Shown in pieces: positions 23,103 to 64,000 of a stretch of 64,000 bases of DNA. The first letter of the stretch is position 1, and every line of letters begins with the position of its first letter. The translations under genes were made by a program, and so were the position numbers. Source of the stretch: Symbiodinium sp. CCMP2592 (Eukaryota; Sar; Dinophyceae; Suessiales; Symbiodiniaceae); assembly GCA_905221615.1 (NCBI GenBank), contig CAJNDT010005877.1, positions 1 through 64,000 of the forward strand, read 5' to 3'. Below the pieces are notes generated by a model, which was given only the letters and a program-made list of their open reading frames with translations, did not search any database and was not told where the DNA came from.

Positions 23103-25121
23103 ATGTCGCTCGCTACCATCGGCAGAAAGCACTATGTGAGCCAGAGTGCTCTGGAGGCAGTACTGAAGGAAGTGGCTGCATGCCCTGAAGTCCTTGACTC
23201 AGCCTCCCGGCGAGGCATCAAAAGGGCACGGGATTCCGAGCTGGAGGCAGAGACTCCTCATGGCCCTTTGGTGGCCAAGATTACAGTACCTGTGGAGGTG
23301 AAGAGCCGAAAGGCAGCTGGAGACGAGGAGGTGAAGATCGTGCCGACAGAGCTGCCGATCCTCAACCTGATGGCATGGATATGGCATGTTTGCCAGTCCA
23401 TGCCTGGTGTAGCTGCCTTTTTCCAAAGGCAGCTATCGAAGTACCCGTGCACAGCAACCAGCCCATGGCGCATGGCTTTATACAATGATGAGATTAGTCC
23501 TGGCAACCAGCTAAAAGCCAGCAACACCAGGAAGATCCAAGGGTACTACCTCAGTTTTCTCGAGTTTGATGCTGAAGGCCGATGCCAAGAAAACCTTTGG
23601 TTTCCTTTGAACTTGACTCGGTCTTCGGTGGTGAACAAGATCCAAGGCGGGCTGTCTGCACTCACCCACATTCTGGTCTCCTCGGAATCGTTCCTGAACC
23701 TCCAGTCGGGCTGTTTGCTGAACATGCCAACCGGGGAACGGGTCATGTTCTTCGCGAAACTGCATACTGTAGTTGCAGACGAGGCAGCTTTGAAGTCTAT
23801 GTACGACTTCAAGGGCTCCAGTGGGACTTTGGTTTGCCCGCTATGTGCCAACATAACAAGCAAGACCCACGGTGATCTGCCAGCAAATGACCACTCGGGA
23901 GAATTGCATGACATATCATGCATCGACAGCAATCTGTTTGTCCGCAGAACCGACAATCAGATCTTCACTGCACAGGCACTGCTGGCGAGAAGGCAACCCA
24001 TGCTGAGCAAAAAGGATTTTGCCTTGCTGGAGTCCAGCATGGGGTTGAACTTTAACCCATCTGGAGTGCTTGCTCACAAAAGCATGCCGCTTGTGAAATG
24101 CTTGATGTGGGATTGGATGCATTGTTATGTGGTAAGCGTCCTCCTGCACGTGGAAGCGAGCTTACTCTTGCCACTCTTGCATGTGCAGGGTGCAACATTT
24201 CAGGTGATCCAGAGCTTTATCTCAGAGTACGAATGGCCTCACAACCTGAAGAACCGGAGAAGAGAAATCTTGCATTTGTTCGACAAAAGGAGCAAACCTT
24301 CTGAGTTCAAGGCCGGGGCTTCGCAGTGCATCACTGTCTATCCCTTGCTGCGGCTTTTCTTGCTGACTCATCACTTTGACACAATGGACGACGAACTTCG
24401 GCGATGCATCAGATCCTTTATGAAGATTTGTATGGTTCTCGACCTCCTGCTTGAATGCAATCGGACTGGGAACCTGTCGGCGGACGAGCTCGAGAATGCG
24501 ATTCGGGCCCATAGCCAAGCTTTCCTTAAAGCATATGGAGAGCAGCACTGTATACCGAAGTTCCACTACAGCCTCCATCTTCCCCTGATGGCTCGAGACA
24601 GGCCTCTCATTTCGTGCTTTACACACGAACGAAAGCATCGGCAGGTGAAGCAGTTTGCTGACAACACGAAGAAAGTGACCGATTGGTTCGAAGCTTCACT
24701 CTTTAAAGATGTTTTGGGCAGGGCCCTTCTGGATCTGTCTGAGCATGCTGGCTTCATGCGGCCCCATTTGAAATCCCCCAAGTCTGTCACTGATGGCGCT
24801 TTGCTGTGGCACCTGGGGCAGACATTCGGGTTTCAGACTCTTGAGCATGTGCAGTCGGCCATGCTGGCCGAGGTCTGCCCAGGACAGACTTGCGAGAGGG
24901 GTGACCTGGTGCTGCTTAAGACGGGGTCCGTTGCAGAGGTGTGGTTGTTTTGCCGGTTGCAGCATGGCGAGCTCCTGGCTCTGTTGAGTGTGCTTGAGCC
25001 ACAAGGGAAGAATCTCTTCCGGGTCAAGCAGGACGGAGCCCAGTTCATGCGAGTGGCCGAGATCAGTCGAACCTGCCTCTTCAAACGCATGAGTGCAGAC
25101 AGCATGCTGGTCGTGCCATAA
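23103..25121 (+). CDS. CACTA/KDZ-like DDE transposase (672 aa)
   Basis: One intronless frame runs from ATG 23103 to TAA 25121. Signatures resemble CACTA (EnSpm) and related KDZ transposases. VVADEAALKSMYDFKGSSGT (Asp226) precedes a CPLC zinc-binding pair. KCLMWDWMHCYV follows (Asp337 and His340, the D-x-x-H motif). The late part reads KFHYSLHLPLMARDRP, then FTHERKHRQVKQFADNT (Glu509). I infer Asp226, Asp337 and Glu509 as the catalytic acids that cut the element ends and join them to target DNA. The Cys pair and the length (600-1000 aa is usual) fit. It is the last gene before the right inverted repeat, with hairpin motifs 16 bp upstream and 20 and 83 bp downstream. The frame looks intact, so the element may be or recently have been autonomous. 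Confidence 0.8.
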   Translation: MSLATIGRKHYVSQSALEAVLKEVAACPEVLDSASRRGIKRARDSELEAETPHGPLVAKITVPVEVKSRKAAGDEEVKIVPTELPILNLMAWIWHVCQSMPGVAAFFQRQLSKYPCTATSPWRMALYNDEISPGNQLKASNTRKIQGYYLSFLEFDAEGRCQENLWFPLNLTRSSVVNKIQGGLSALTHILVSSESFLNLQSGCLLNMPTGERVMFFAKLHTVVADEAALKSMYDFKGSSGTLVCPLCANITSKTHGDLPANDHSGELHDISCIDSNLFVRRTDNQIFTAQALLARRQPMLSKKDFALLESSMGLNFNPSGVLAHKSMPLVKCLMWDWMHCYVVSVLLHVEASLLLPLLHVQGATFQVIQSFISEYEWPHNLKNRRREILHLFDKRSKPSEFKAGASQCITVYPLLRLFLLTHHFDTMDDELRRCIRSFMKICMVLDLLLECNRTGNLSADELENAIRAHSQAFLKAYGEQHCIPKFHYSLHLPLMARDRPLISCFTHERKHRQVKQFADNTKKVTDWFEASLFKDVLGRALLDLSEHAGFMRPHLKSPKSVTDGALLWHLGQTFGFQTLEHVQSAMLAEVCPGQTCERGDLVLLKTGSVAEVWLFCRLQHGELLALLSVLEPQGKNLFRVKQDGAQFMRVAEISRTCLFKRMSADSMLVVP

Positions 25122-25448: not shown

Positions 25449-25859
25449 TAGTAAGTCATAGATGCATAGAGAGTCAGTCATAAGTAAGTAATCATAAGTA
25501 AGTAAGTAGAGTCAGTAAGTAAGTCAGTAAGTAGTAAGTATAGTAAGTATAGTAAGTATAAGTAAGCAAGTCAAGTAAGTAAGTAAGTAAGTAAGTATAG
25601 AGATAGCATAACATAGAGTCCAGTGTCAAGTGTCAAGTGTCAAGTAAGTTAGTAAGTAGATTGAAGTAAGTAAGTAAGTAAGTAAGTCGTAAGCATAACA
25701 TAGAGTCAAGTATCAAGTGTAGAGTCAAGTATCATAGAGTCAAGTGTCAAGTGTAGAGAGTCAGTCATAGGGGTCAAGTAAGTAAGTAAGTATCAAGTGT
25801 AGAGTCAAGTATCAAGTGTAGAGTGTAGAGTAAAGTATGGAGTCAAGTAAGTTGATTCT
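25449..25859. repeat. AAGT / AGTCATAGAGT satellite
   Basis: An irregular array of gtaa, aagtcata, gagtcaagtatc and similar words. The same word set flanks the left end of the DNA transposon (10985-11003) and builds the 115-bp repeat at 9206. Confidence 0.9.
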
Positions 25860-27137
25860 ATGTCTGTCATCTATGTACTCAGCTGCGGCGTTCCACACGG
25901 AAGAACCCTTCGCGATGCTTTCGGGAAAAAAAACCTGGGGCAAGCGAGGCAGGGCAGCCAGCTTGAGTCGTACCCCCTAAGATACCGCCTGGGTCAGTCC
26001 GGCCCTCAAAAATCAAAAAGTCTGATGCTGCGTCAGAGATTTTTGGCTTGGGGAGCATGCCCTTTTGCCAGTCTTTTGTCTGGCTTGGACTGCGCACGCC
26101 TTGACCTTCAGAAGTTCCAGAACAATGTGATCAGACAACTGCGCACCCTATGGAGGGCCCCACTGTTTATCATTCGAGACTTCCTCAGCCGTTTGAAGCT
26201 TAGTAATACTGTAGAAACCCTCCCAAGCAGAGGCGTGCAACGCCTACGAGCCGAACAGGAACTTCCGATCTCGGTCATTTGGCCGACCTCGACACATCAG
26301 TGGTGGCAACTACTGCTGCGGCACGCAACAATGCAGGATAGACTTGTGCGCTCGCCTCCCGCTAGCAACAATCCTGTTACACCTAGCAGCACCATCCTGC
26401 CTCTGGTAGCCACGTGCCCTCCTGTAGCATGCCCTAAATGTGGAGTCTGCTTTGCCAACCAAGCCCGCATGCCTAGGCACCGTAGTCAGGCACATAAGGA
26501 CACGGAGCCACAGCCGAAGCCGACCATGCGAGCGCTTTGCCAACGATACATGCAGCATGCACTACGAGGCATGCCACAGTGCAAGCATTGTGAGTGGCGA
26601 TTCAGCAGTCGGCACTGGGCTCGTTGTCCAAAACTCCAAGCAAGCGAAACCGACCCACTGCGGAGGATGTGCCTTCGTCGATTGACGGTAGACTCTCAGG
26701 CGCCTGACACCTTGGCACTAGCTAGCCCACAGTCGGGCTCCCTGCCGCTGCTTGGAGTGTCTTCAGAACTGGCACAGCTGGCACAGGATCCGGATCCGGA
26801 TGTCAGGGTGCAGCATCAGGAATCATTTCGCATGCATGAACGGGTTCAGAGCTGGCTCTGTGCATACTGCCACGTTGACTTCAAGGCCAGTAAAATCAGC
26901 AGACTCAGACATGCCCAAGCCTGCACGACTTTGTGTCGCACCGGTCGGCTACATCTGCTCGCTTGCGCTGACTCCCAGCAGCATGGCGATGGAGGATCTC
27001 CAGCCCACGGAGACTCAGCAACAGGAGCTGGCGAGCGCGGAACACCAGGCCAGTCTGATGCAGAGCATGCTGAAGACTGCCCCGTCGCGGAGTCCTGGCC
27101 AAATCCCCAGCGAAGGAAGCCGAGAATATGGATGTGA
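25860..27137 (+). pseudogene. Element A: RT C-terminal region with three Zn fingers
   Basis: The open frame starts in sequence corresponding to the end of the RT thumb (LRTLWRAPLFIIRDFLSRLK matches the LR-x-I-x-R-x-P-x-F pattern of element C). The reverse transcriptase core is missing. Fingers follow at residue 191 (CPKCGVCFANQARMPRHRSQ, then AH), near residue 242 (CKHCEWRF...C), and CAYCHVDFKASKISRLRH..C, ending at 26924. C2H2/C2HC fingers of this kind follow the RT in all three elements and presumably bind template RNA or target DNA. The frame after 26925 overlaps the linker ORF and is probably not used. Confidence 0.7.
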
Positions 27138-27900
27138 GTTCTGGGGAGAACAAGCGGGGCACCAGCGAGCCGGAGGACACAAGACGCGGCAAGGGAGGCC
27201 AGAAGTGGCCCAGGGGAGACGCCAAAGGAAGGATACTGGATGGTCCTCTCGCGGACAAGAGAGCGGAGGGTAAGCACTTGAACCGTCAGGACGATCGGGA
27301 AGCCGAGCAGGAGGAAGACTGACTGGTTTCACAGGAACTGGGGAGCTCGCTCCATGTCGACCTACCAGCCGAAGGAGCTGTGCGGCATGATGGCGAGACG
27401 ACCAGTTGGCCATCAACAGGTGCGAAGCTGGGTACATGCTGTTCCTCCAGGCACATGGCATGCTCAGCTTGGTGGCGGACCTGTACCAGGTGGCCCAGGT
27501 CTGCAAACAGGCGAAAGAGGCGGGAGGCTCCGAGACCGTCAACCTCCAAGGGTCGTTCAAGCATGCGCTCGATCTCCTCCTATCCCGCCTCGAAGCATGC
27601 CAAGCTACCGAAGACAGCGCGAGGGAGGCTCAGGAGATGATGATCTTGGACGAGCACCACAACATCCCTTATTTGGAGTGGAAATCGAAGGCCAAGGCAC
27701 TCCAGATCAAAAAGGACAAAGAGGCGCTGCCGATGAGCGAAGCACTTCGCATCTTGAAGGGCTTGCAGCAGAGGCTGGTGCTTATCCCCTTGGTCGTGAT
27801 GCGATTTCACTCGACCCGCAAGTTGGTGAAGGAGCACAAGGGCGAAATCCTGCCGATGATGTTCCAGATCGACTATCGGATATCGAACCCCAGAGGCACA
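26983..27900 (+). pseudogene. Element A: conserved linker ORF between zinc fingers and USP
   Basis: It starts at ATG 26983 (MAMEDLQPTETQQQEL), 58 nt after the last finger and in the +1 frame. Frame breaks near 27100 and 27330 follow. The best conserved part is 27406-27890 (HGMLSLVADLYQVAQVC, ALRILKGLQQRLVL, MRFHSTRKLVKEHKGEILPM). It aligns with element C at 62578-63563, where the equivalents are MGCLGMLKQAAGNW, LMRILDQLAAPTTG and TRFKSVRPLADSYDSEVVPF. The N-terminal part is charged and Gly/Lys-rich (RRGKGGQKWPRGDAKGR in A, KGKGQWGHWGQGKRPW in C), which resembles a nucleic-acid-binding tail. I know no family for it. Confidence 0.6.
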
Positions 27901-27989
27901 GCTGACGTGGAGCCACCTGAGCCGCCTCACACACAGCGGTCTCTTCCGCACTTGAGAAGATGGGCAGGAGCGCACTGGAAATCGCCTCC

Positions 27990-28812
27990 AGCGCCTGCTC
28001 TCCGACTCGTAAAATGCTTGTGCTCACAAACACTTCAAATTATTGCTACAGCAATTCTGCCCGGATAGCTTCTTTGGGCCCTCTCAAGGCCGTCTGGGAA
28101 TGGCTTCGAAGGCAGACCAGGTCGGTTACACCATGGAATCACCTAGCCTGGAGGGCTGCCCACACGGGGTTGCGACAACCCAGCATCCAGCATGACGTAG
28201 GTGAGTACTCATCCTTTCTGCGCGCCCGCATGCACTGCAATGCCGTGGGATTGCGGGAATCGCGCATGAAATTAAGTGATCAGCCGGCCAGGCGTGTTGA
28301 TCGGGGCACCATTTGGCCCGTCTTCTTCCAGGAGCCTGTAGAAGGCAGGGCCCGGCCAAGCAAAACAGCAGTCAGCATGCAATCACTCCTTGATGCTTGG
28401 GCCCAGCAGGAGGGTGAGCACGCTTTGGTGAAAGTTCCCGCCGTGCTCTGCTTGATCAACAGGTTTAACATAGGTAGCGCGGATTCACATAAGTCGGTTC
28501 AGCCGGTGGTTCCAGAGCTGCAAATCCCAATGCCAAAGTTCTGCCACGACGTGCAAATCGGAGATGCACTGCAGTACGGCTATGTGCTGTACGCCGCAAG
28601 GCCATGATTTGGTATCTAGGACCTCGCTGTGATGAAGGACACTACCGCTGCATCTTGTTTCAGCCTGAGAGTGAACAAGCGATCATTACGGATGATAACC
28701 GTGCTGCGACACTGCTGACTGCTCAGCAGTTTGCTGCACACTGCACAATCCAATGTGTTCTTCTACACCAGATCTCAACTAGACTGTTCCCTGCCAGCGC
28801 TCGGTTAATGCT
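27990..28812 (+). pseudogene. Element A: ubiquitin-specific protease (USP, C19) domain
   Basis: The Cys box is NTSNYCYSNSARIA with the nucleophile Cys codon at 28044-28046. QHDVGEYSSFL follows about 50 residues later, corresponding to the usual QDAxEF box. After a frameshift near 28600 comes LGPRCDEGHYRCILF (His codon 28640-28642) and ITDDN (Asp codons 28691-28696), the USP His and Asp boxes. About 250 residues is short but within the range of compact USPs. In host proteins this fold cleaves ubiquitin from substrates. Here it sits at the 3' end of a retroelement. All catalytic boxes are visible but the frameshift breaks the chain, so this copy is probably dead. Confidence 0.75.
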
Positions 28813-29165: not shown

Positions 29166-31096
<1,931 letters not shown>

Positions 31097-31392
31097 CCGC
31101 CACAAGTGCTCAAGCGGCCGCGCTGGATGAGAGGTTTCGAACAGGCTTGGGGCGCAACTGCTGTGCTAGAGGCTCCTACTGGGCCCTTCTCTGAACAGTA
31201 AAGGTTTGCGCCTCCTCTCTACGCCATGGTCCTCTCCCTTTTCTCGCAGGAGCTGCTTTGAGCCGCCAGGTCCCAATTCCTGGGCCCAGACTCTGTTTAA
31301 AACATTGCAACACTACTGGGTAGGCGGTAGGGTTTCCACTTCCGCGCAGTGGAGGGAGTCATTAGGCTTCTGTCTCTTGACGAAAGTAGCGG

Positions 31393-32665
31393 ATGGCGCA
31401 ACTACCAGTGCACTCACAAAACTTTGCATCTCTTCGCAAGAATTCGTTCAAGACAGCATGTAGACGGACCATACGAAGTGACGGGCCCGTGCCATACCGC
31501 GGGCAGGTCCTGACACCCACTCTGGTCAACCAGCTGGGGGTACGACCCCCACCCACTAGAAGAGAGCTACAGTCACAGACTGACGGCTCCCCTGCATATG
31601 GCACAGCCTCCCGCAGGGCAGGACGACTAGAAAGATCCATTCGGGTAGTCTCTTGGAACGCGGGGCACCTAGGTCAACAGCAATGGGGAGAACTAAAAAC
31701 GTGGCTGGCGGCTGAAGCCTCCCACCACTGCGACGTCCTTATCCTGCAGGAGACGCACTGGACGGAGACTAGCGAGTTCAGTGTTTCAGGTTGGCATTGC
31801 ATCTCTTCGGCCTCGGAGTCTGCCAAACGTAGCACCCAGCAGAAGCAGGGCGCGAAGCGCAAGACTAGGCAGGAACCGAAAGCGGCTCCATCCACGACCC
31901 GGGCGGATGGCGTCATGATTCTCTTCTCACCCAAGTTTGCAGCCAAGAGCCTTCGCTGGAAGGAGTGGAGTCCAGGCAGGGTCCTTGAAGCTCGTGCAGA
32001 CATGGCAGGTACTTTGTGGCTGTGTATCAACATGCTTGGTCCTCGGCCAAGTCCATCCAGTCTAACAAGGACGACCGTGGTCATGTACTATCAGTCATGT
32101 CTAAGGTGGTCAAGCAGGTGCCCAAGCGGGATTCTCTAGTCGTGGCAGGCGACTTTAATACCTCCCTGCGCTCGTGTCCTCCATTGGTGGGTACACCCGT
32201 GAAGCAGCCCACGGAGGATCGTCCTGACGAATCCCACTTGTCCAATCTGCTGCTAAGGTTGCGATTGGTGGCCCTTAATACCTGGCACTGTGACAACATT
32301 GCCACCTTTGCTCAAGGTGGCGTGGAGTCGCAAATCGATTTTGTCCTTACTAGGAATCCACTGCAGGAGGCAAGGCCAAAAGGTCTGCCCCTTGGACGGA
32401 CTGCCCGTTGGGTAGCTGGAAGAAGGGAGGGCACTACTCAATTAAGGCCGAAATCCCCCTCCAGCACCACTGGTTACTCCCACCGCACAAGGGAAGCACA
32501 CGCCGTTATGATTCCCTAGCTCTTCAGGCCGCAGTCCGTGAGGAGGACGACACAGCCAAGGCACTGCATAGTTGGGTAGCATCCAGAATGGAGTCCTGTC
32601 AGGACCCTTCAGATTGGAATGCACTGCTGCAGAACGTTTCTTCCCCAAACTCCCCAAAAGACGAC
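31393..32665 (+). pseudogene. Element B: AP-type endonuclease region (frameshifted)
   Basis: The frame from ATG 31393 begins with a conserved basic preamble (YRGQV near 31494; the same YRGRV occurs in element C). It enters the endonuclease at RVVSWNAGHLG (31645-31677), with QETHW at 31746-31760 and GRVLEA. A frameshift near 32005 moves coding to VAGDFNTS (32148-32159) and ESQIDFVLTRN (about 32325-32355). Another shift near 32400 leads to GGHYSI, the position of the last catalytic His. A third shift near 32630 joins the RT frame. The order of motifs (N, E, D-x-N, D, H) is that of LINE endonucleases, which nick the target for reverse transcription. Three frameshifts make this copy defective. 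Confidence 0.8.
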
Positions 32666-35600
32666 TGATCCCGCCTGAATCCGAGACTCGACGTGTGTGG
32701 AGGGCCAGGACCCTTTGCAGGGCAGACAACACAGCTCCCTCAGCACAGCTGATCGAGCCTCATCAACCAATGGCACAGCCTCCTGGGTTGAACACACTCC
32801 CTCAACCGGAAACTGAGGTGGAGCTGGCGCAAGTTGCGCACAGACAAGCTGTGAAGCAAGCAAAAAAGGACAGAATAGCGGGTTTCATAGCTGAAGTTGA
32901 CGCCAGCATAGCGGAGGGCGACCAACATATTTCGTTTCAAACCCTTAAAAAGCTGCAGCCTTGGCAGCCGGCGCGTCGGGCTCAGCTCAAGGACAGCACA
33001 GGACATCTTCTAGGCCCAGCGCAGGAGCTTGCGGCACTCAGGGAGTACGCGAACCAGGTTTTCGCGGCTCACCCCCCGCTGAGGCCAATGACTGGAGCTT
33101 TTCCGGTTTTGGAGTCATCCAAATTAGCCGCTCACATTCATTCCATCAAGCCTAATAAAGCTGTGCCTGACGGAGCTGCACCTGCTGCCATTTGGAGACT
33201 TTGCAGTGACGTCATTGCACCGGTCCTTTCCCGACATGTGGCTGCTAAAGAAGTAGAGGATGGACTAGAATCTGATCTCATCGACGCCGATCTTTGTCTA
33301 ATCCCCAAACCGGGCAAGCCTTCGGACAAGCCAGCAAACTTGCGTCCCTTGGGCATTTTGAGACCGGATGCTAAAGGACTGGCTGGAGCGGCCAGAGAGG
33401 CGCTACAACCCCTGACCCTCTCGTTCCTAAAACACATGCCACAGTTTGCCTACCTTCCTGGTCGTGGGCTTTCAGATGCGCTGGAACGAGTCGTGTGCCA
33501 TGTGCGGGAGGCTCGGTCTTTGTTGGAGCAGGCTCATCCTACGAGACATGCTATACAGCAAGGCACACAGGTGCCATCTCTAGTAGGCGGTCTGACCTTT
33601 GCTTTAGACCTAAGCCAGGCGTTTGACACAGTCTCTCGCCAAGAGATTATCGGTCTCCTTCAGCGTGAGGGGGCCGATCAGGACACAGTCCACCTCGTTC
33701 AAGCTCTCCATGACGGATCCAGATATGTCTTACATGCCCAAGGCGATTCCACTTCTATCGAAACCACAGCAGGCATTAAACAAGGATGTAAGCTCGCTCC
33801 CACCCTATTCTCGTTCCTCACAGGTGACCTCTTCCGGTCTCTGGTGGATCTGTTCGGTGCTGAACAGGTTCTGAAGTTTTTGACGGGCTACGCCGATGAC
33901 CTGACGCTTCATAGGACTATTCGTTCTGAGAAGGACCTCAAGGCCATCCATGCACTTATAGCTGCCCTGTTGGAGGAGGTCCGCAAACATCGACTCAGAG
34001 TCAACATCGGCAAGTGCGTCATTTTGGTAAAGCTGGCAGGTAGAGAAGCACAAAATGTGATGAACAAACACAGCTGCTGGATTACCAACCCCAAAGGAGA
34101 GCCAGTCAGAGGGTGGCGCATCGGGCCCAACAAGTCGTTCCCTGCCTTCCAGTGGGTCTCCTCAAGCAAGTACTTAGGAGTTATGATCTCCTACAACCAC
34201 TTCGAGTTGCAGACTCTGCATTTTCGGATGGGGGAGGCGAAGCAAAAGTTGCATCAAGTTCGCCAATTCGTCTACAACCGCAGGTATGCAAGTACCATGT
34301 CGCGCCTTAAGGTGTGGCAGAGTACTGTCCTGAGCACCTTGACGACTGGCCTATCTGACGTCGGTTTAAGCGAAGAGTCGGCCAAACAGCTTCGCAGCTG
34401 GCACGCCTACAAGGTACGATCGGTGCTGAACCTGCCGGCTCACACCACTCGGATCACCACTAAGGATCTCTTCCAGCTCTACAACATCCAGGACCCTGTC
34501 CACGCACTGCAGTCCAAGCTAAGGAAGCGGCTTCGCAAACTGGAGCGACGAGCAGTGCAAAGCCCGGACATCACGACAGACCCCTCGGTTCTGCAGGTTA
34601 TCCGAGATAAGCTGTTGGTCCTGTCACAACTCCCTGAGCCCGAGGAACATCCGGTAACCTCATACGAGTGCACGCTCTGCGCGGCTTCATTTGAGACAGC
34701 AAATGGACTACATTTGCATAAGTCGAGGGTTCATCCGGCGAGCATTGACCGCTATGTGCCTTCAAGCTTCGATAGAAAGCTCCACGCTGTGGATGGGATG
34801 CCGCAATGTGCGGCATGTAAGCGTAAATTCCATCAATGGAAAGGCCTACGTGACCACTTGCTTTCGGGGGCATGTCCGGAACCTCAGAAGCTCCGTTCAC
34901 TAAAAGAAGCAGACAAACAGTCCAGCCATCCCGATATTAGGACTCTCTTCCAGCTGAGACAGGACATTGCTCTGCTCCCACAACACCGCATCGCGGAGCT
35001 CTCGAGGACTGCGGATTCCAAGGTCCTTAATCATCGGTGCTTAACGTGTGACTTCTGGACTTTTGACCACACCAAAGTCAAGTCGCACTTTCGTCAGGCG
35101 CATCCTAAGGACTGGTCACGCCTACACAGGCGGGCTGTTAATATCTGTCAGGGCTACTCGCCCCAGTTAGCCAAGGGCCACTCATGTCCCTTCTGTGGCT
35201 ACAAGGTCTATGACCGCAGACTGCATCCGGAGCAGTGTCCGGTGCTCTATCAGGTAAGCACGCAGTGGCTGCGAGGGCAGCCTGACGCGGACGTCGATCC
35301 CGTCGCCCCGCCTCCCAAGCCTCAGACAAAGTCGTTGGCCAGCTTTTTTAGACCTAGGTCGAATGGCACAGCCTCCAACTCGTCGAGCACAGCTCGTCAT
35401 CCTACAACAGACTCGAACCAGGAGTCTGTGACGCAGGCCCCCAGGAACACAGAGCCACAGCCTACAGGCTTACACAAACGTGTACTGTCTAACACGGCAA
35501 ACTCCTGCTACGCTAACGCTCTCTTCCAGGCCTTGCATCAAGTATCGAGCTTTGGGTATGATCTGGGTGCTTTTCAATCTGTCTTAACCCATTTCGGGGA

Positions 35601-36228
35601 TGAGAGTGCCCCTAGACTTCTGAACTTGTTCGGCCTGTTTGAATTTCGCCATGCCATTGCCGGTTGGCGACTGGATGGCAGGCAACACGATGTCTCAGAA
35701 TTTCTTCACCATCTGCAGCAAAAGCCCATGGGATCCCTTCAGCACACTCAGTGGCAGGGTCGTACTGGGGGAATCGTTGAGGAGTCGGATGTGGGAGTCA
35801 GTCCTCTTCTCCTTCCCCTTCCGACGGGACCTCTGTCTCTCCAAGCCTGCCTAAGATTCTGGGAATCGCAAACTTTTAGTCGAGCGCTGGTATGGGCCCC
35901 AGAACTCCTAGCTGTTGTGATTTGCAGATGGCAAGACGGTGTCAAGAATACCCAGCCGTGCGCCTGGACCGGCCGTGCCATGGTGTCCGTGTGGACATCC
36001 AGCGAGCACACTGCCCAACGATCCTACCAAGTCCTGGCAGGAGTTGCCCACTTTGGGGACTCCCTAGCGTCCGGGCACTACCGAGCCTTCTGGCCAGAGG
36101 ACCCCGCGGATGCGAGATCTCAGGTGTGGATTTGCGACGACTACAAGCTTCCGGAGAGGGCCTCAGCGGCCTTGGTTCAATCACTTTCCCGAAACGTCTA
36201 CATGCTTTTCTTGCAACGAACTCGTTAG
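32572..36228 (+). CDS. Element B: reverse transcriptase-zinc finger-USP polyprotein (1218 aa open frame)
   Basis: RT spans about residues 190-540. Visible motifs are CLIPKPGKPSDKPANLRPLG, FALDLSQAFDT (Asp346), KQGCKLAPTLFSFL, GYADDLTLH (Tyr440 to Asp443, the catalytic pair) and KYLGVMIS. Four zinc fingers follow: CTLC..H..H at 700, CAACKRKF..C at 746, CLTCDFW..H at 823 and CPFCGYKVYD at 872. The C-terminal 250 residues form a USP: NTANSCYANALFQALHQV (Cys979), GRQHDVSEFLHHL, HFGDSLASGHYRAFW (His1169), WICDDYK (Asp1189/1190), ending NVYMLFLQRTR. The frame start is not a real initiator, since the protein would begin in the frameshifted endonuclease. Every RT and USP catalytic residue I expect is present. 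RT copies element RNA into DNA. The protease would act on ubiquitin or a related modifier, but its target is unknown. Confidence 0.85.
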   Translation: MGSIQNGVLSGPFRLECTAAERFFPKLPKRRLIPPESETRRVWRARTLCRADNTAPSAQLIEPHQPMAQPPGLNTLPQPETEVELAQVAHRQAVKQAKKDRIAGFIAEVDASIAEGDQHISFQTLKKLQPWQPARRAQLKDSTGHLLGPAQELAALREYANQVFAAHPPLRPMTGAFPVLESSKLAAHIHSIKPNKAVPDGAAPAAIWRLCSDVIAPVLSRHVAAKEVEDGLESDLIDADLCLIPKPGKPSDKPANLRPLGILRPDAKGLAGAAREALQPLTLSFLKHMPQFAYLPGRGLSDALERVVCHVREARSLLEQAHPTRHAIQQGTQVPSLVGGLTFALDLSQAFDTVSRQEIIGLLQREGADQDTVHLVQALHDGSRYVLHAQGDSTSIETTAGIKQGCKLAPTLFSFLTGDLFRSLVDLFGAEQVLKFLTGYADDLTLHRTIRSEKDLKAIHALIAALLEEVRKHRLRVNIGKCVILVKLAGREAQNVMNKHSCWITNPKGEPVRGWRIGPNKSFPAFQWVSSSKYLGVMISYNHFELQTLHFRMGEAKQKLHQVRQFVYNRRYASTMSRLKVWQSTVLSTLTTGLSDVGLSEESAKQLRSWHAYKVRSVLNLPAHTTRITTKDLFQLYNIQDPVHALQSKLRKRLRKLERRAVQSPDITTDPSVLQVIRDKLLVLSQLPEPEEHPVTSYECTLCAASFETANGLHLHKSRVHPASIDRYVPSSFDRKLHAVDGMPQCAACKRKFHQWKGLRDHLLSGACPEPQKLRSLKEADKQSSHPDIRTLFQLRQDIALLPQHRIAELSRTADSKVLNHRCLTCDFWTFDHTKVKSHFRQAHPKDWSRLHRRAVNICQGYSPQLAKGHSCPFCGYKVYDRRLHPEQCPVLYQVSTQWLRGQPDADVDPVAPPPKPQTKSLASFFRPRSNGTASNSSSTARHPTTDSNQESVTQAPRNTEPQPTGLHKRVLSNTANSCYANALFQALHQVSSFGYDLGAFQSVLTHFGDESAPRLLNLFGLFEFRHAIAGWRLDGRQHDVSEFLHHLQQKPMGSLQHTQWQGRTGGIVEESDVGVSPLLLPLPTGPLSLQACLRFWESQTFSRALVWAPELLAVVICRWQDGVKNTQPCAWTGRAMVSVWTSSEHTAQRSYQVLAGVAHFGDSLASGHYRAFWPEDPADARSQVWICDDYKLPERASAALVQSLSRNVYMLFLQRTR

Positions 36229-37305
36229 CATCATCGCTTCAGGCGATGCATGCCGGCCCAACCTCGGCCCTCAGGGCTAAGCAGGGCGCCCGTGCGTGAG
36301 AAGCCTGTAGTCAATTTCATGTTGACGCAGGCCGCCTCACGTCAAGGCCAAGTGCGTCATGAGCGCACGCGGACATGCACACTCTGTAATTTCCTTCCTC
36401 TCAATCAGCTCTTTTTATTTAGTCAGCTTCCCCCCAGCTCCCTTTGGCCGTCATGACTGCCTCGCCTGCTACTGCCAAGAGCCCGGAGCACAAGCATCTG
36501 TCGCAGCCGGGTTGAAATGACAACGGAAGGAAAAAGCTGCCATCGTTGTCAACCCTTCCGCCTCAAGCTTCGCGAAGCTCTCATCCGACACCCCAATGTC
36601 TTTGGCTCGCGCCTTGAAGACTGCCGCGCTCTCCCCAAAGGACATGGCTCCTAGTGCTAGATTCACTCAAGATCAGACTAGGGCCCAGCACGCCTTGCAA
36701 TCACTTTTAGCGACGGCGAGAATGCCGCTCCCTAGTGCGCCACAATTTAGTCCAGCTTAGTGCTGAATTGCTCTTGCCCCAATATGGGCGCTTAGGCTAA
36801 GCACCCATTTTAGTACGGGAGCAATTAGAAAATGCCACAGACTCCTCAAATCCCGTATGGCGCAGCCTCTGGGAATTCGGTGCTCTTCCGACGCTTTTGC
36901 AAATCTCTTCGGGAGCTGTAGAGCAGCGCGCTAGCCACGGCAAAATGCAGGACACTGCACTTCGCCTGAGCCGATATGGTCAGTCAGCTGTCAGCTGTTT
37001 GACTCACTCAGCTCTGCAGGTACGCACATGTGACCCTTACGGCCTTCTGTCTCCAGCATGAGTAATCCGTGTGGGACGCCACAAGACGGATACTCTAGGC
37101 GCCGGCTTTGCCCGAAGTACGACCCAATTGCTGGGACAGGTGCACAGACGGACGCGTCTGTTCACAACAAGGTGCTTACTCAACTGAGCAGTCTGAGAGG
37201 AATATGAGCGATGAATGCTAGCAGATAACCAGTTTCACGAGTGCACGGGACCAAAGGCGCCCGCAAAGCGCAGAGCACGCTCGCGCAGCGTTCAATTGAA
37301 AAAAA
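36229..37305. other. 3' flank of element B and unassigned DNA
   Basis: The first 200-250 bases may be the 3' UTR of element B. Apart from the small minus-strand ORF at 36469-36666, I see no gene or repeat. Confidence 0.4.
36469..36666 (-). CDS. Small dinoflagellate element-type ORF (65 aa), fragment
   Basis: The frame starts at ATG 36666 and reads MNLALGAMSFGESAAVFKAR, then AKDIGVSDESFAKLEAEGLT. The pattern of a short helix, DIG-x-S-x-E-S, and LEAEGLTTMAAFSF is, from memory, similar to the start of large dinoflagellate retroelement or phage-like polyproteins, but I cannot verify this. It would be a 5' fragment of a longer gene on the minus strand, with nothing matching downstream on that strand (lower coordinates). 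Confidence 0.4.
   Translation of the reverse strand: MNLALGAMSFGESAAVFKARAKDIGVSDESFAKLEAEGLTTMAAFSFRCHFNPAATDACAPGSWQ

Positions 37306-37350
<45 letters not shown>
37306..37350. repeat. (TAG)n microsatellite
   Basis: About 15 perfect TAG units after a short A-run. A G-run of 18 bases follows at 37394-37411. Confidence 0.92.
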
Positions 37351-58275: not shown

Positions 58276-58313
<38 letters not shown>

Positions 58314-58314
58314 T

Positions 58315-58376
<62 letters not shown>

Positions 58377-58377
58377 T

Positions 58378-58430
<53 letters not shown>

Positions 58431-58431
58431 A
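58189..58431. repeat. (CTG) then (ACT)n microsatellite 5' of element C
   Basis: CTGCTG at 58189-58215, mixed ACTGCT, then about 50 ACT units at 58266-58430. The tract ends directly at the start of element C. Confidence 0.95.
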
Positions 58432-58487
58432 GGGTCTCGGCTGGAGCTGAACAGGAAACAGGAGTAGGCTCTCGTGCGGTGGCGTGC

Positions 58488-60290
58488 ATGGCATTCATTC
58501 CTCGACTGCTGCTTTTTATCTGTTTCTGCTACAACATAACATCACCGCTCTGGCTGTCCGGGTCCCAAATCCCGGAGATCTCCTTACGAATGGATGCTGC
58601 TCGACGGACAGCGGAGAGATCAGACCCGAGGGTTGGGTCATTCACCACACGTGATCCAGGAGCTCTGGCTTCTGCTGGAGCAAAATACTCTGGAGGGAAT
58701 GGCGAAGACCTACGCGCGGCACCTTTTAACAGGACGCGGAAGCGCGCATACAGACGAGCCCGAAGACGGGCTGAGATGCATGGCGCCACGACATACAGAG
58801 GAAGGGTCTGGACAGCTGCCGAGTTGGGAACCAAGCAGCTTCAGCAGCCAGGCGAAGCAACTGCTCCGCAAAACCCGATGAGGAGATCAGCTCCACAGGA
58901 CCGCTGGGAGGCTCAACCGCGCATTGCGGTGCGCACATACAACGCTGGAGGCTTTACAAGTGAAGTCTATGATGTCTTCTGTCACTGGCTACAGCATCAC
59001 TGCCAGGACGATGTCGTGATGGTGCAGGAGCTGCACTGGGGCTGCGGAAAAACTGCCGGAAGCTGGAAAATCCATGGATGGCATTTCTTCATGAGTGCTG
59101 ACCCGAAAAACAGATACGCGGGGGTTGGTATAGCTCTGTCAGAACGCATCATGGCCCAGGCTACTGTAAGCCACTGCACGATCCTCCCGGGCAGACTGCT
59201 GCAAGTAAAGTGCTGCACTCCGCGCCTTACAGTCGACTTCATCTGTGGATACCAGGCAGTTTGGCAGGAAGGTGCCGCGGCGAAGTCAGCAGGACTCCGT
59301 GACGAATTCTGGATGAAACTGGGAGGGCTTCTACAGGGCCTGCCGCAGCGCAACTTGCTGGTGGTTGGCGCAGATCTCAACACGCACTGCCACCCAGTAC
59401 GAGGCCTGATAGGTCGCGGAGTTATGAAAACACACCATAATCCTGACCCTGATTTTGTTCAATTGCTGCAACAACATGACCTTGTTCTGTTAAACACATG
59501 GGGACAGGCTCACCCGCGCGTCAGTCACACGTTCAGCAGTCATAATGCTAGAAGCCAGATAGACTTCATAGCGACACGCCGTCCAGTTGCGGACGCCAAA
59601 GCGCGCCAAGCAGCGCCACAAGCGTTCGACATGTCACCATGGAGGCGGGGACCGAAACATCGTGCAATCTGCGCCTCTCTGCCTTGGCGCGCAGGCTGGA
59701 CTTTCAGGAAAAGTGAGAAGGGCTCACCAGCCGACTCTTTAGCAGCATTGCGTTTGTCCATCAAACATGGCCTTCCTAGTGCGGATGAACTCCGCGCCCG
59801 CGTAGACCAGCTCCTTAAGGACAGCCCTGCCATCACCATCGCCCAGGCCAATCAAAGCGTTCGTAACATATGTGTGAAGCTGTTTCCTGCCCGCCCTAAA
59901 ACCTCCTCTAGACCTGGCGGTAGAAAAGAGGTCACCCAAAAGGTAGAGGCCATGTGGAAGGCTCACGCATCCCTGTGTGATATTCGGTCCTCACGACCGG
60001 AACGCGGCATACTAGCAGCCGGCAGAGCGGCTGCGAAATTTCTGCAAAGCAGCCGAGCACTCAAAGCTGCCAGCAGACGGGCCAGAAAGCAGTGGTACGA
60101 GGAGCAGATAGTCGCTGCAGAGGTAGCTGCAAGCAGGCACGACTTAGGGGAGGTTCATCGTATAATTCGGGTCTTAGCTCCTAAGCGGAAGAGGGAGGTA
60201 GTCTGCATCAAGAGCGAGGAGGGCCGTCTGCTCAGTCCTGCTGCCGAGTTTGATGCCATCTATCAGCACTACAGCACGGCCTTTGGCAGA
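58488..60290 (+). CDS. Element C: AP-type endonuclease ORF
   Basis: The frame is open from 58479, with a first ATG at 58488. ATG 58594 (MDAARRTAERSDPRVG) is an alternative, and the hydrophobic stretch between them is probably leader. A basic preamble (RKRAYRRARRRAEMHG, TYRGRV) leads into the endonuclease: RTYNAGGF (58938-58955), QELHW (59025-59039), VGADLNTH (59367-59387), SQIDFIATR (about 59554) and GPKHRAIC (about 59649). These are the N, E, D-x-N, D and H motifs of LINE endonucleases, all present. A Lys/Arg-rich linker toward the RT follows. The original frame continues to 60458, but RT homology shifts frame near 60285. Confidence 0.82.
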
Positions 60291-61301
60291 ATATCAAGTG
60301 CCACCAGCAGTTGCACCTATAAGGTTCCAGGAGTCGGACATACTCGGCACCATAGCACAGCTCAAGCCAGGCAAAGCAGTGCCAAAGACCAGCCTTCCGA
60401 CCGAAGTCTGGCAGTTGTGTGCATCCAGCTTCTCGAAGCTTCTGACCGCGCGTCTTAATGAATGCCCTGCTGCCACCCATTGGCCCGAGGAGGTCAGTCA
60501 CTGTTCGCTTGCGCTGTTACCCAAGCCTAATCGTCCCAGCAAAAGCCCAGGAGACCTCAGGCCACTAGGATTGCAAGACCCGGGCTCTAAGATCTTGGCC
60601 ATGCAGTTGCGCAAGCAGTTGGAGGCTGTCACGGACAGCTTTGTTGCACAGCGTCCCCAATTTGCTTACATTCGTGGCAAGGCAATAGACGAAGCCATCA
60701 GCAGGGTGGCAGCACACTGCTCCAGAGTCAGATCCAAGTTGCAGGTTTCTTCGCAAAGTGTACATGCTAAATACTCAGGTGCGGCGGCTAGAGCTAGTAC
60801 TTGCGAGGGTGGGTTATGCTTAGCCTTGATCTTAGCCGGGCTTTTGAAAGTCTGCAAGCCTCCCTAGACCATGCACTAGTGCCCAACGACCTGCAGCATG
60901 CGATCCTGCAACTACACGAGAACTGCCGGTACGAAGTTAACCACAAAGGTCATGTTGGAAGCTTCGCAATGCAGCGTGGCGTTAGGCAGGGCTGTGCTCT
61001 TAGCCCAACACTGTATGTCTTATTCACATGCCTTCTGTATGATGAACTGGCAGCTCAGACCAGCGAAGCATGGGCCAAGGAAGCCTTGTCTCTCTTTGCC
61101 GATGATAGTCACCTGTCTTGGGAAGTCCAGACACTGAGCGATCTGGCGTTTGTCATGAAATGCATACAGGTTACGTTTCGGGTCTTCCAGAGGCACGGCA
61201 TGAGAGTCAACGCTGCCAAGTCCCAGCTGATACTCCGGTTGCGTGGCAGTGCTGCAGCGAGATGGCTGCGAAGGCGGCTAGCGGCTAGTCAGGCAACCTG
61301 A
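60286..61301 (+). pseudogene. Element C: reverse transcriptase (frameshifted)
   Basis: The first part lies in one frame (KPGKAVPKTSLPTEVWQL, LLPKPNRPSKSPGDLRPLG, RPQFAYIRGKAIDEAI). After a shift near 60820 it continues as MLSLDLSRAFESLQ, RQGCALSPTLYVLF and LFADDSHLSW (FADD at 61095-61106, where element B has YADD). A TGA at 61299-61301 interrupts it before the thumb (VYLGVVISYG, about 61367). Motifs A and C keep their catalytic Asp residues. Only the frame breaks show decay. Confidence 0.8.
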
Positions 61302-61317
61302 TGGGGTTAAAGTCAAT

Positions 61318-62577
61318 ATGGGCACCCCGCACTCACCCCTTTGGATCCCTAAGGTTGATAAAATGGTTTACTTAGGAGTGGTGATCTCGTATGGTAACTA
61401 CGAACTGCAGACTGCATTACACCGCTTGAAGGCAGCCACCGCGAATAGGCATAGGCTTGCTAGGGTGCTGCACAACCGGCAGTTGTCTTTGCCGCAACGT
61501 GCTCGACTGTACAGTGCCTGTGTGCGCAGCAGCCTTTTCTACGGGCTGCACGCCATCGGTCTAACCAGTGTCGCAGCGAGGAAGTTGGACCAGGCGGACG
61601 CGCGCGCACTGCGTGCGATAGCTCGTTCGCCTGCATTCCTAACACACGAATCCACGGTTGCCTTACGCGCACGCCTAAACGTTAAGTCACCTCTTGTCAT
61701 CCTTACCCGAACCTTGCAGAAGCGACGGGACACTACCGTGCAGCCCGAGTGCCGAGAGTGGTTCGACATCAAGCTCGAACAGATGAGTCACTTACAAAGT
61801 GCGCCGACTGCCAGTGCCTTGACGCCGGTGGATGGACCAGCCATAGGTAAGCCCTGCCCTGAATGTGGTCTCTATTTCAGTAGCATTCGGCACATGAGAT
61901 CACATCGCACCAGGCAGCACTTCAAACAGGATAAACCCCAGCGCACACGCGAAGGGGTCATGGCAGCTGAAGCTTACGTGTGCCAAACTGTCGGAGGTCT
62001 CCCGCAATGCAATCACTGCAAAAGAATCTTCACTAGGGTTGAGGGCCTTAAGAAACACCTTAATAGGGGGTGTGACGCACGGCGGGAAGACATGTTGCCA
62101 GCTGAAGGGGAAGCCGCTGTGACGCCGGGTCAGGTCCCCGGTCATCTAGTGGAGTCGCTTGTCGGGCACTCGTGCCGGACTCCACAGGCTGCCCCGGAGG
62201 CCGCAACACCGGTCACCGGTCCGCTACTGCTCAGAGCAGACTGCTCAGTCCCAACTTTGTGGAGTGCATTAGTCGAGGATGGAAAACAGCCTTGCGCGAG
62301 CCTTCAGTACTCGCTTCCTTAAGTCAGCACTGCCTGCTTTGTGGACAATGGTGCACTGCCACAGAGTTTAAGCAACACATACGCTTGATGCATAGCAGCG
62401 CATGGACTCACAAAGAGGAAGCTGATGCAGTGCCGCGCAGTGGTTTATCGGCTCACACTCAGTGTGTTTACTGCGGTGTGCAAACGCGCCAGCCTCGTCG
62501 TCACCTTAAGCACTGCCAGGTTGTTTTTCAGGCTGCACTGGGTCATTGTCTGCTACGCTCCTCCACGACTGAAAACA
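61318..62577 (+). pseudogene. Element C: RT thumb and four zinc fingers
   Basis: The frame from 61318 holds KMVYLGVVISYGNYELQTAL and the helical C-terminal RT part, then CPECGLYFSSIRHMRSHRTR..H (about 61855) and CNHCKRIFTRVEGLKKHL..C (about 62008). A frame change near 62250 leads to CLLCGQWCTATEFKQH...H (about 62333) and CVYCGVQTRQPRRHLKHC, ending 62516. Number, order and spacing match the four fingers of element B. Confidence 0.75.
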
Positions 62578-63563
62578 ATGACAACGCTGGAGGAGGGAAT
62601 GGACGTGGACCTCGCCGAGCAGTCTCGCCGAGAGCTAGCGGATGTCCTGGGCAAGAGCGCTCGCCAGTACGGAGCGGAGTCGGGCGACAAGAAGAAGGAG
62701 GACCCGAACGAGCGCCCCTCCAAGTGGCCAAAGGACGGCACCTTGAAAGGGAAGGGACAGTGGGGACACTGGGGGCAAGGCAAGCGACCATGGGAGCCGA
62801 GCGGATCCACGGAGCAGGAGCCTCCGACACTGGACCAGGCGACGATCAATTTGATCAAAAGTCTGGTGCGCCTCAGCCTCCGACACGAGGAGGAACTGAT
62901 GCGAATCCGACCAGACGTCGGGTTCGTCATGTTCATCGACACGTGCGATATGGGCTGCTTGGGGATGCTGAAGCAGGCCGCCGGCAACTGGCAAGAGCTT
63001 TTCTCGCAGGGCAAGGTTCGCTCCTCCCTACGTCTAATGCTGGCGCTGGCACTGTTTACGGATCTCAAGACGAGAGCCGAGGAGACCCTGGCAGACCAGG
63101 AGCGTCTCACCAAATGCCACACAGTGGGATGGGTGAAGGAAACGGAGTCGGGCCTGGACCCAGCCTGGACCTATCACACCTGGGACCCCGCCCCCAGAAG
63201 AAGCAGAGGTCCTGCTGGAGAAAGCTTTGAAGCACTCGGAGCTCATGAGGATCCTGGACCAGCTTGCAGCACCTACCACGGGAGCAGGTCCTCACGAGGT
63301 TCAAGTCGGTGAGGCCCCTAGCGGACAGTTACGACTCGGAGGTGGTTCCATTCCTCATCTCGGTGGGCCTTCGCGGGGAGTCGAGCCAGATCTGCTTCAA
63401 CGCACTGCAAACCCTCTCCGGATGCGCGGTGATGAAGCTGATGGGGGTGCGCATCCGTCCAGAACGGATCCAGAAGACGCCGCTCATGAAATCGGTCGAG
63501 GAGGCCTTTCTCGCCACCAACTACTGCGATTGGACCCGCAGAGCAACACAGTGGGGCCAGTAG
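62578..63563 (+). pseudogene. Element C: conserved linker ORF
   Basis: ATG 62578 (MTTLEEGMDVDLAEQSRREL) lies 61 nt after the last finger in the +1 frame, as in element A. A Lys/Gly/Trp-rich stretch (KGKGQWGHWGQGKRPW) precedes a helical domain (NLIKSLVRLSLRHEEELMRI, MGCLGMLKQAAGNWQELF). Frames shift near 63190 (LMRILDQLAAPTTG) and 63240 (VLTRFKSVRPLADSYDSEVV to DWTRRATQ, stop 63563). It is homologous to element A 26983-27900. Function is unknown. The charged N-terminus suggests nucleic-acid binding, as in a Gag/ORF1-like protein displaced to the 3' side. Confidence 0.6.
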
Positions 63564-64000
63564 GAGAGCTAGGTCGCTCTCCGGCTGGAGCCGCGTCTTG
63601 GGTAGCGCGGCTATCCCCACGCCCAATGCTCAGTGTGTCGCGAGCCAAACTTCGCAATCGAAGTAATGTGTGCTACATTAATGCTATAGCCCAGGCCGTC
63701 TACTGGATTGGGGAACTCTCGTCGGCACAGGAGGCATGCTGGGGACGCCTTAGAGCGGGCATTGCTTTGCTAGCGCGGGAGTGTCAGCTTCACCTGCCTG
63801 AGTGCATCGCCACGCAATCCTTGTTTGTTGGCTGGAGAGACCTGCATCAGCAGCATGACGCAGCTGAGTTCCTTATTCACCTGCTTGCTCATGCACGCCC
63901 AAAAGCACTGGAGGGAGAGTGGCAAGCTCGACTTACCAACCCTCACCGCCTGAATGATGCAGGACCGCTGAACCACTTGATGCGCATACACCCCGCAGGC
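63564..64000 (+). CDS. Element C: USP (C19 peptidase) domain, N-terminal part
   Basis: The open frame contains the Cys box NRSNVCYINAIAQAVYWIGE (Cys codon 63671-63673) and, about 60 residues on, LHQQHDAAEFLIHLL, matching the QDAxEF box of ubiquitin-specific proteases. The His and Asp boxes would lie beyond the window. The frame is open to the end of the window. It aligns with element B residues about 970-1060 and with element A. Confidence 0.75.

What the first reader, a model, noticed from the sequence alone, without database searches (positions are those of the whole stretch)
35480..36228. A LINE-type retroelement encodes a ubiquitin-specific protease domain fused to its reverse transcriptase
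In element B one open frame carries RT (YADD), four zinc fingers and then a C-terminal USP with every hallmark box: NTANSCYANALFQAL, QHDVSEF, GDSLASGHYRAFW, CDDYK and the ending VYMLFLQRTR. Some non-LTR elements are known to carry OTU-type or other cysteine proteases. I know of no description of a USP/C19 domain in this position. It could stabilise the element's own proteins by removing ubiquitin, process a polyprotein, or counter host silencing.
Basis: partly seen in the sequence, partly recalled or inferred. Interest (0 to 1): 0.92.

Follow-up and report, generated by a model that had tools for sequence, protein, structure and literature searches.

The report
Jumping gene carrying its own deubiquitinase
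In this dinoflagellate genome a large, apparently recently active family of LINE-type jumping genes makes one long protein that ends in a ubiquitin-removing enzyme whose active site evolution has kept intact in most of the copies examined, which suggests that escaping or using the host's ubiquitin system is part of how these elements spread.

The parts
30865..31096 (.). (TAG)n microsatellite: 5' insertion target of element B
   Evidence: repeat scan; junction read
31097..37305 (+). Element B, whole LINE copy (5' end CCGCCACAAGTG..., 3' end ...CAATTGAAAAAAA)
   Evidence: ends defined by where near-identical own-genome copies stop matching and (TAG)n begins
31393..32139 (+). N-terminal part of the ORF with the start of the APE endonuclease (Exo_endo_phos), broken in this copy; intact in sister copies
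   Evidence: window piece 17.4 bits, below the 24.5 cut-off; L019, L030, L029 above the cut-off in intact frames; deletions against L019
32572..36228 (+). Open frame: RT, zinc fingers, linker, USP, stop
33301..34185 (+). Reverse transcriptase RVT_1, YADD at 33889
   Evidence: (E 9.7e-22)
34669..35247 (+). Four C2H2/C2HC zinc fingers
   Evidence: several of their cysteines and histidines nearly invariant in alignment A1
35248..35478 (+). Linker, the least constrained segment (dN/dS 0.187 between subfamilies)
35479..36225 (+). USP (Pfam UCH, peptidase family C19) domain at the extreme C-terminus
   Evidence: (35.5 bits alone), AF2 model, Foldseek and VIA to USP30/46/12/21, dN/dS 0.085
35491..35508 (+). 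Cys box: Asn974 (oxyanion-hole position, role recalled) and catalytic Cys979
   Evidence: N4 invariant, C9 in 11 of 12 aligned USPs
36076..36141 (+). Catalytic His1169 (GHYRAFW) and Asp1190 (CDDYK)
   Evidence: H199 invariant, D220 kept in at least 90%
37306..37350 (.). (TAG)n microsatellite: 3' flank of element B
25851..28607 (+). Element A: decayed relative (zinc finger, remnant of the accessory ORF, USP boxes at 28029 and 28188)
   Evidence: (UCH 12.7 bits, below cut-off)
58429..64000 (+). Element C: frame-broken LINE (EN, RT, fingers, second ORF in another frame, USP from about 63647), next to (CTA)n at 58276-58428; 5' end approximate; its USP frame runs on to contig position 64420
   Evidence: (EN 27.3 bits; UCH piece 17.3 bits, below cut-off, cut by the window's end)

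Best explanation
Element B is a non-LTR (LINE) retrotransposon of the APE-endonuclease type that inserts into (TAG)n microsatellites. Its single protein, about 1,618 residues in intact copies, is endonuclease - RT - four zinc fingers - variable linker - compact USP deubiquitinase. SHOWN by sequence: the fusion in one frame, the intact catalytic residues, purifying selection on the USP, the shared deep split of RT and USP trees, and the microsatellite target. INFERRED: the USP is an active cysteine protease that removes ubiquitin (or a relative of it) in cis, from the element's own protein or factors bound to its RNP, so that the RT-bearing complex escapes proteasomal removal long enough to reverse-transcribe into its target. 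My confidence is about 0.97 for the identity and fusion, 0.85 that the domain is catalytically active in most lineages, and 0.5 for the cis-stabilisation role; the figure below is for the statement as a whole.
For: UCH above the Pfam cut-off in the window frame and in three sister frames together with RVT_1 and Exo_endo_phos. High-confidence USP fold. In 12 aligned LINE USPs the Asn, the box Asp, both His of the His box and Gly-His-Tyr are invariant and Cys is kept in 11; Cys, QHD and GHYR are kept in 18 of 18 own-genome frames checked, window included. dN/dS of the USP is 0.085 (bootstrap 0.05-0.13) at dS about 1.2, similar to endonuclease (0.054), RT (0.036) and fingers (0.076) and lower than the linker (0.187). 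Genome: 38 scored matches to P0001, 24 of them in stop-free frames of at least 1,617 codons; 29 of 29 scored copies of a second family open through the USP; 13 of 29 scored P0041-like places run stop-free from RT to USP. RT and USP trees share the same main split at 100/100 and 99/99 support. In type II elements the main frame stays stop-free across a linker where its amino acids are unconstrained (main frame 0 stops, third frame 17), as expected if read-through to the USP is selected. Precedent: Helitron-encoded VTD deubiquitinases are active, and their authors suggest that they prevent degradation of transposition proteins (passages of PMC9741609).
Against: No biochemical evidence exists here. 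One related family (C5005, L044) keeps a USP-like domain that by my reading has lost the Cys, QHD and His boxes (UCH 12.5 bits, below cut-off); L045 is similar and frame-broken; P0043 has Ser for Cys. So catalysis is not universal. In the P0044-like search 10 of 24 scored places show no match to the USP part of the query; I opened two of these ten and both held the pseudo-USP. The window domain lacks the paired CxxC finger subdomain common in cellular USPs (reading), so specificity for ubiquitin over another modifier is open. 16 of 39 RT relatives in the protein database show no USP match; I printed the ends of ten of the 16: seven end before the USP position, P0040 and P0046 end in the other-frame protein, and P0047 is a distant outlier. 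UCH scores are modest: 24.1 bits in L030, just over the cut-off, and no match at E 0.01 in P0002.
Confidence: 0.55

Rival explanations
1. The USP acts in trans on host chromatin or repair proteins at the insertion site (for example ubiquitinated DNA-clamp or DNA-binding proteins), easing target-primed reverse transcription or undoing host silencing.
For: The domain is tethered to the endonuclease-RT-finger protein that must sit on target DNA. Symbiodinium LINEs are known to carry DNA methyltransferases, another chromatin-level enzyme (passages of PMC5890265). The Ginger paper suggests that transposon OTU/Ulp1 domains may activate DNA-repair factors after or during transposition (passages of PMC2836005).
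Against: No substrate evidence; nothing in the sequence distinguishes it from cis protection.
Confidence: 0.25
2. The USP is a maturation protease that cuts the element's own polyprotein, as papain-like proteases do in viral polyproteins.
For: It sits at the end of a very long multidomain protein; viral deubiquitinases often also process polyproteins (passages of PMC9741609).
Against: No GG site shared near the domain borders: in ten proteins scanned, the GG motifs kept in most lie inside the RT and the endonuclease. The Pfam scans list no ubiquitin-like domain.
Confidence: 0.12
3. The domain is mainly a ubiquitin or protein-binding module, and catalysis is dispensable.
For: A relative with an intact frame has lost the catalytic boxes yet still matches the LINE-USP profile (L044); P0043 has Ser for Cys.
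Against: The catalytic residues are kept in 18 of 18 own-genome frames of this subfamily group and, for Cys, in 11 of 12 divergent USPs.
Confidence: 0.07
4. A chance or recent passive capture of a host USP exon, or an assembly chimera, with no role for the element.
For: Dinoflagellate genomes are rich in retrocopies (passages of PMC12014239).
Against: Many contigs carry the same fusion; dN/dS 0.085; the fusion is present in LINEs whose RTs are 25-39% identical to that of P0005.
Confidence: 0.01

Closest known systems
Helitron/Helentron-encoded VTD and OTU deubiquitinases (PMC9741609; search listing and passages)
   Same: A transposon protein carries a catalytically intact deubiquitinase domain; the authors suggest protection of transposition proteins from the proteasome
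   Different: Different class of element (rolling-circle DNA transposon), different protease family (VTD/OTU, not USP/C19) and different hosts
Ginger1 DNA transposons with C-terminal OTU or Ulp1, and a Trichomonas vaginalis protein joining transposase_11 to Peptidase C19 (PMC2836005; passages)
   Same: C-terminal ubiquitin- or SUMO-family cysteine protease on a mobile-element protein; the Trichomonas case is a C19 domain
   Different: DNA transposons, not LINEs; the C19 case is a single protein mentioned in the discussion
SymbioLINE-Dnmt retrotransposons (PMC5890265; passages)
   Same: Symbiodinium LINEs with Exo_endo_phos and RVT_1 that captured a host regulatory enzyme kept by purifying selection
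   Different: Enzyme is a DNA methyltransferase in an upstream ORF; the words ubiquitin, UCH, PF00443 and protease do not occur in the main text held
Cellular USPs, nearest by structure USP30, USP46, USP12, USP21
   Same: Fold, Cys, His and Asp boxes, QHD box
   Different: About 250 residues, no paired CxxC finger subdomain in the window domain, fused to an RT; in a small tree the LINE USPs (with L005, probably a decayed LINE copy) group apart from the four other USPs sampled
L1 ORF2p, then R2 (PDB sequence search with the full-length relative P0005)
   Same: RT region; endonuclease before RT as in L1 (recalled)
   Different: C-terminal fingers plus USP; (TAG)n target; no separate upstream ORF in the window subfamily
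Site-specific non-LTR elements that target microsatellites (PMC4640811; start of the abstract in a search listing)
   Same: Insertion into simple repeats
   Different: That abstract speaks of restriction-like-endonuclease elements; these have an APE endonuclease and a USP

Membership tests
Non-LTR retrotransposon (LINE), APE type | Reverse transcriptase with Y/FADD | tested here: met
   RVT_1 78.1 bits in the window frame, YADD at 33889; 70.8-79.7 bits in three sister frames
Non-LTR retrotransposon (LINE), APE type | APE-type endonuclease N-terminal to the RT in the same protein | tested here: met
   Above cut-off in L019, L030 and L029; broken in the window copy
Non-LTR retrotransposon (LINE), APE type | No long terminal repeats or terminal inverted repeats | tested here: met
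   No direct or inverted repeat of 25 bases or more within 31097-37305
Non-LTR retrotransposon (LINE), APE type | Mobility by target-primed reverse transcription | not testable with these tools
   Near-identical dispersed copies with constant ends fit it but do not show it
USP (peptidase C19) deubiquitinase | UCH profile above the curated cut-off | tested here: met
   28.1 and 35.5 bits against 23.9
USP (peptidase C19) deubiquitinase | Cys, QHD, His and Asp boxes | tested here: met
USP (peptidase C19) deubiquitinase | USP fold | tested here: met
USP (peptidase C19) deubiquitinase | Cleaves ubiquitin conjugates | not testable with these tools
   Needs a biochemical assay
USP (peptidase C19) deubiquitinase | Zinc-binding finger subdomain with two CxxC pairs (common, not defining; recalled) | tested here: not met
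   No CxxC between the QHD and His boxes of the window domain; the relatives P0007-P0010 have a single CxxC there (reading)
SymbioLINE-Dnmt | DNA methyltransferase ORF upstream of the RT ORF | tested here: not met
   In L019 about 290 bases lie between the (TAG)n junction and the ORF's Met, too little for a DNMT ORF
Helitron carrying a deubiquitinase | Rep/helicase domains | tested here: not met
   No Helitron family in the Pfam scans of the LINE proteins

The most novel reading that the evidence does not exclude
USP-LINEs are an old, species-rich superfamily of dinoflagellate retrotransposons in which deubiquitination is a built-in step of retrotransposition. The USP was captured once before the RT lineage split, has been kept active in most branches and turned into a pseudo-enzyme in at least one, while a Helitron-like element in the same genome took up a USP independently. 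That would make the ubiquitin system a main front between these genomes and their transposons. In one branch the ribosome reads through a region that also encodes a second, selected protein in another frame in order to reach the USP.
Probability: 0.4. Interest if true: 0.88.

Novelty: new variant of a known kind. Interest (0 to 1): 0.8.

Why it matters
Dinoflagellate genomes are mostly very large, those of Symbiodinium hold many LINEs (passages of PMC8045281), and little is known of how these hosts restrain transposons. A LINE that carries and preserves its own deubiquitinase points to ubiquitin as a restraint worth testing, gives a compact enzyme whose substrate can be assayed directly, and adds retrotransposons to the short list of mobile elements known to carry deubiquitinases. 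The multi-copy intact frames and exact microsatellite target also make the family a practical subject for a retrotransposition assay.

Tried and rejected
Rejected: chance motif match (UCH E 1.1e-8); assembly chimera (same fusion on many contigs); recent passive capture (dN/dS 0.085); polyprotein processing at GG sites (none shared near borders in ten proteins). A scan of the viral contigs with the window USP found no relative (that tool says records very near the window's genome may be left out). Giant-virus USP models in BFVD score like the best cellular ones (best E 4.9e-13, TMq 0.72, 15% identity; PDB best E 1.5e-12, TMq 0.65, 19% identity; the 39 BFVD matches with E up to 0.001 are 7-21% identical), so a viral origin of the domain is neither supported nor excluded.

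Led nowhere: hhalign between the downstream ORF2 of type I elements and the other-frame ORF of type II elements was not significant (P 0.19) although both are of similar size; no Pfam family for either. Ten paper searches (open-licence PMC library only, no preprints). Searches aimed at USP or ubiquitin in retrotransposons or dinoflagellates, the others at neighbouring questions. I saw listings only, cut to 20 of 5,269 papers, 25 of 60 and 8 of 75. No listed paper reports a USP in a LINE; Repbase-type reports and subscription journals were not searchable. The host species was not identified.

Rows dropped: in the two trees I used 17 proteins (window B, L019, L029, L030, L037, P0002, P0003, P0005, P0020, P0022, P0033, P0034, P0038, P0041-P0044) and left out all other fetched proteins, among them P0006, P0014, P0016, P0017 (near-duplicates with both domains), P0013 and P0030 (partial or oddly modelled) and P0004, P0007-P0010 (USP but no RT motif found). 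The USP tree has only five rows besides the LINE USPs; one of them (L005) falls among the LINE USPs and is probably a decayed LINE copy, so the LINE USPs form one side of a branch only if L005 is counted in; 'cellular' for L001 and L007 is my assumption. Genome searches score only best candidates, so counts of intact copies are biased towards intact ones.
Full report
WHAT IS THERE. The frame 32572-36228 (+) is open for 1,218 codons. It holds a reverse transcriptase (RVT_1, residues 244-538), four C2H2/C2HC zinc fingers (starting at residues 700, 746, 823, 872), a linker, and a UCH/USP domain (residues 972-1213) that ends just before the stop. UCH scores 28.1 bits in the full frame and 35.5 bits alone, cut-off 23.9.

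THE WHOLE ELEMENT. Comparing the window with own-genome copies gave exact ends. Element B runs from 31097 to 37305 and sits inside a (TAG)n microsatellite: 5' junction (TAG)n|CCGCCACAAG..., 3' junction ...CAATTGAAAAAAA|(TAG)n. Of 18 readable 5' ends (17 fetched copies plus the window), 17 abut a TAG-type repeat and one (L033) a TTG-type repeat; one more fetched copy (L022) was masked there. The 3' ends of the ten group-1 copies (L019-L028) abut TAG-type repeats, some of them impure, L024 with masked bases after 11 letters; for L029-L036 the 3' end lay outside the stretch fetched. Four of four copies of a second family also start at (TAG)n. By a stricter measure, 15 of the 18 5' flanks are at least 60% TAG-type over 60 bases, against 2.4% of 60-base stretches in the window at large (all). 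There are no internal direct or inverted repeats of 25 bases or more.

INTACT COPIES. The window copy's endonuclease part, from 31393, is broken by two small deletions relative to L019. Sister copies are intact: an open frame of 1,619 codons (Met at codon 2) in nine fetched copies and 1,617 in seven. In L019, L030 and L029 one frame carries Exo_endo_phos, RVT_1 and UCH, each above its curated cut-off. In the genome search with P0001, 38 places were scored of 4,284 candidates: 17 at 98-100% identity (window included), one at 90%, 20 at 85-86%; 37 of 38 reach residue 1218, 37 of 38 have no stop, and 24 of 38 lie in stop-free frames of at least 1,617 codons, one of these (C3846, L022) running into masked bases. 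With the database relative P0005 as query, 29 of 29 scored copies of another family (62-63% identical in the first part, 49-51% in the second) are stop-free through the USP in frames of 1,642-1,651 codons. Both counts are of best candidates only.

HOW OLD AND HOW WIDESPREAD. A search of 5.8 billion proteins with the USP part returned six proteins at E up to 0.001; P0002, P0003, P0005 and P0006 also have the RT, and P0002 and P0005 the endonuclease. A second search with the divergent USP of P0007 gave five. An RT search from P0005 gave 39 proteins. With a USP profile made from seven of these domains, 17 of the 39 match over at least 180 positions, 6 partly and 16 not. I printed the ends of ten of the 16: seven stop before the USP position, P0040 and P0046 are gene models that end in the other-frame protein described below, and P0047 is a distant outlier; the other six I know only by length and motif rows. 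USP-bearing relatives include P0038, P0041, P0042, P0043 and P0044, whose RTs are 25-39% identical to that of P0005. In the own genome, 16 of 29 scored P0041-like places run from RT to USP, 13 of them without a stop; 13 of 18 scored P0042-like places and 14 of 24 scored P0044-like places show a match in the USP part. The eight database relatives that bear an organism name are Symbiodinium. RT and USP trees of 17 elements share the split into two groups (12 and 5 rows) with support 100/100 and 99/99; inside the groups several forks are unresolved and some long branches are unsure. This fits one old acquisition followed by joint inheritance; it does not prove it.

AGAINST A UNIFORM CATALYTIC ROLE. 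In the C5005 family (L044) the main frame ends in a domain that matches the LINE-USP profile (E 8.5e-21, for the three frames searched) but that, by my reading of the translation, has lost Cys box, QHD and His box; Pfam UCH gives it 12.5 bits, below the cut-off. L045 is similar and frame-broken. These are two of the ten P0044-like places that show no USP match; the other eight were not opened. P0043 has Ser in place of Cys. So some lineages carry a pseudo-USP.

AN UNEXPECTED EXTRA: OVERLAPPING FRAMES. In type II elements (L037, L044, L045, and in decayed form element C) the stretch between the fourth finger and the USP also encodes, in another frame, an ORF of 265-425 codons that is homologous between elements (L037 against P0040, E 7e-30 in a ten-sequence comparison). 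Between L044 and L045, over 325 codons, that frame has dN/dS 0.145 and no stop; the main frame 2.17 and no stop; the third frame has 17 stopped codon pairs. In plain words, the second protein is conserved, and the main frame is kept open although its amino acids are not, which is what one expects if ribosomes must pass to reach the USP. Overlap itself distorts dN/dS of the unconstrained frame, so 2.17 should not be read as positive selection. In type I subfamilies L029 and L030 a separate ORF of 266-275 codons lies downstream of the USP; in L019 the same stretch has only a remnant of its start. None of these has a Pfam match.

A SECOND KIND OF USP TRANSPOSON. Two of the eight best UCH places of the genome lie at the N-terminus of long frames. 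One (C1007: L004, L038) also has Helitron_like_N above its cut-off; the other (C1557, L008) shows no Helitron family in the 773 residues scanned but pairs with the first in the USP tree (99/96). Both keep a CxxC and group with two USPs that I take for cellular ones, apart from the LINE USPs (93/99 for the split). This suggests an independent capture, resting on one clear Helitron-like locus.

MECHANISM. Shown: the domain, the fusion, its conservation, the target. Inferred: protease activity, ubiquitin as substrate, and cis protection of the element's protein. The nearest tested analogue is the Helitron-encoded VTD family: the zebrafish domains react with a ubiquitin probe, two of three also with NEDD8, and the authors suggest prevention of proteasomal degradation of transposition proteins (passages of PMC9741609). 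Self-cleavage lacks a candidate site.

LITERATURE. The listings of ten searches of the open-licence library showed no report of a USP in a LINE (limits under Tried and rejected). Read as passages only: PMC8045281, PMC11453091, PMC12014239, PMC5890265, PMC9741609, PMC2836005, PMC4067079. The 98-99% identical, stop-free copies here point to recent activity in this genome, unlike the LINE remnants of ancient expansion described for Symbiodiniaceae in PMC8045281.

VERDICT. What it does to ubiquitin, and to which protein, remains to be tested.

Noticed in passing
L037:7879-8673, L044:1310-2584(-), L045:973-1968(-), window 62389-63563 (element C): A second conserved ORF (265-425 codons in the three loci) overlaps the main frame in another frame between the zinc fingers and the USP; its dN/dS is 0.145, the main frame is stop-free but unconstrained.
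   Followed up: partly
L038:6357-9500 (same place as L004) and L008:1-2319(-): Long frames with an N-terminal USP in the same genome (UCH 83-88 bits); L038 has Helitron_like_N above its cut-off, L008 has no Helitron family in the part scanned; the two USPs pair with each other, apart from the LINE USPs.
   Followed up: partly
G000 contigs C5005 (L044) and C5265 (L045): LINE families whose USP-like domain has lost the catalytic boxes by my reading: a pseudo-deubiquitinase, in an open frame in L044.
   Followed up: partly
L030, L029 (about 7.3-8.1 kb in element orientation): Type I subfamilies carry a second ORF of 266-275 codons downstream of the USP frame; only a remnant of its start is left in L019, of the window's subfamily.
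   Followed up: partly
window 31097 and 37305; L019-L036; L040-L043: Insertion of two USP-LINE families into (TAG)n microsatellites with constant ends.
   Followed up: yes
L036 position 1852 (element orientation): The 3' end of another copy of a related element lies just upstream of this copy in the same TAG-rich repeat: a possible second insertion into one target.
   Followed up: no
G000 contigs C994, C2844, C3007, C1987, C1555, C1745: Spaced UCH frames, on C994, C2844 and C3007 in pairs of about 593 and 1,822-1,837 codons, with one 1,085; perhaps arrays of the N-terminal-USP elements.
   Followed up: no
window 23100-25121: A 673-codon open frame of unknown kind upstream of element A; not examined.
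   Followed up: no
window 1-1240: Long low-complexity His/Thr-coding repeat, open in several frames.
   Followed up: no
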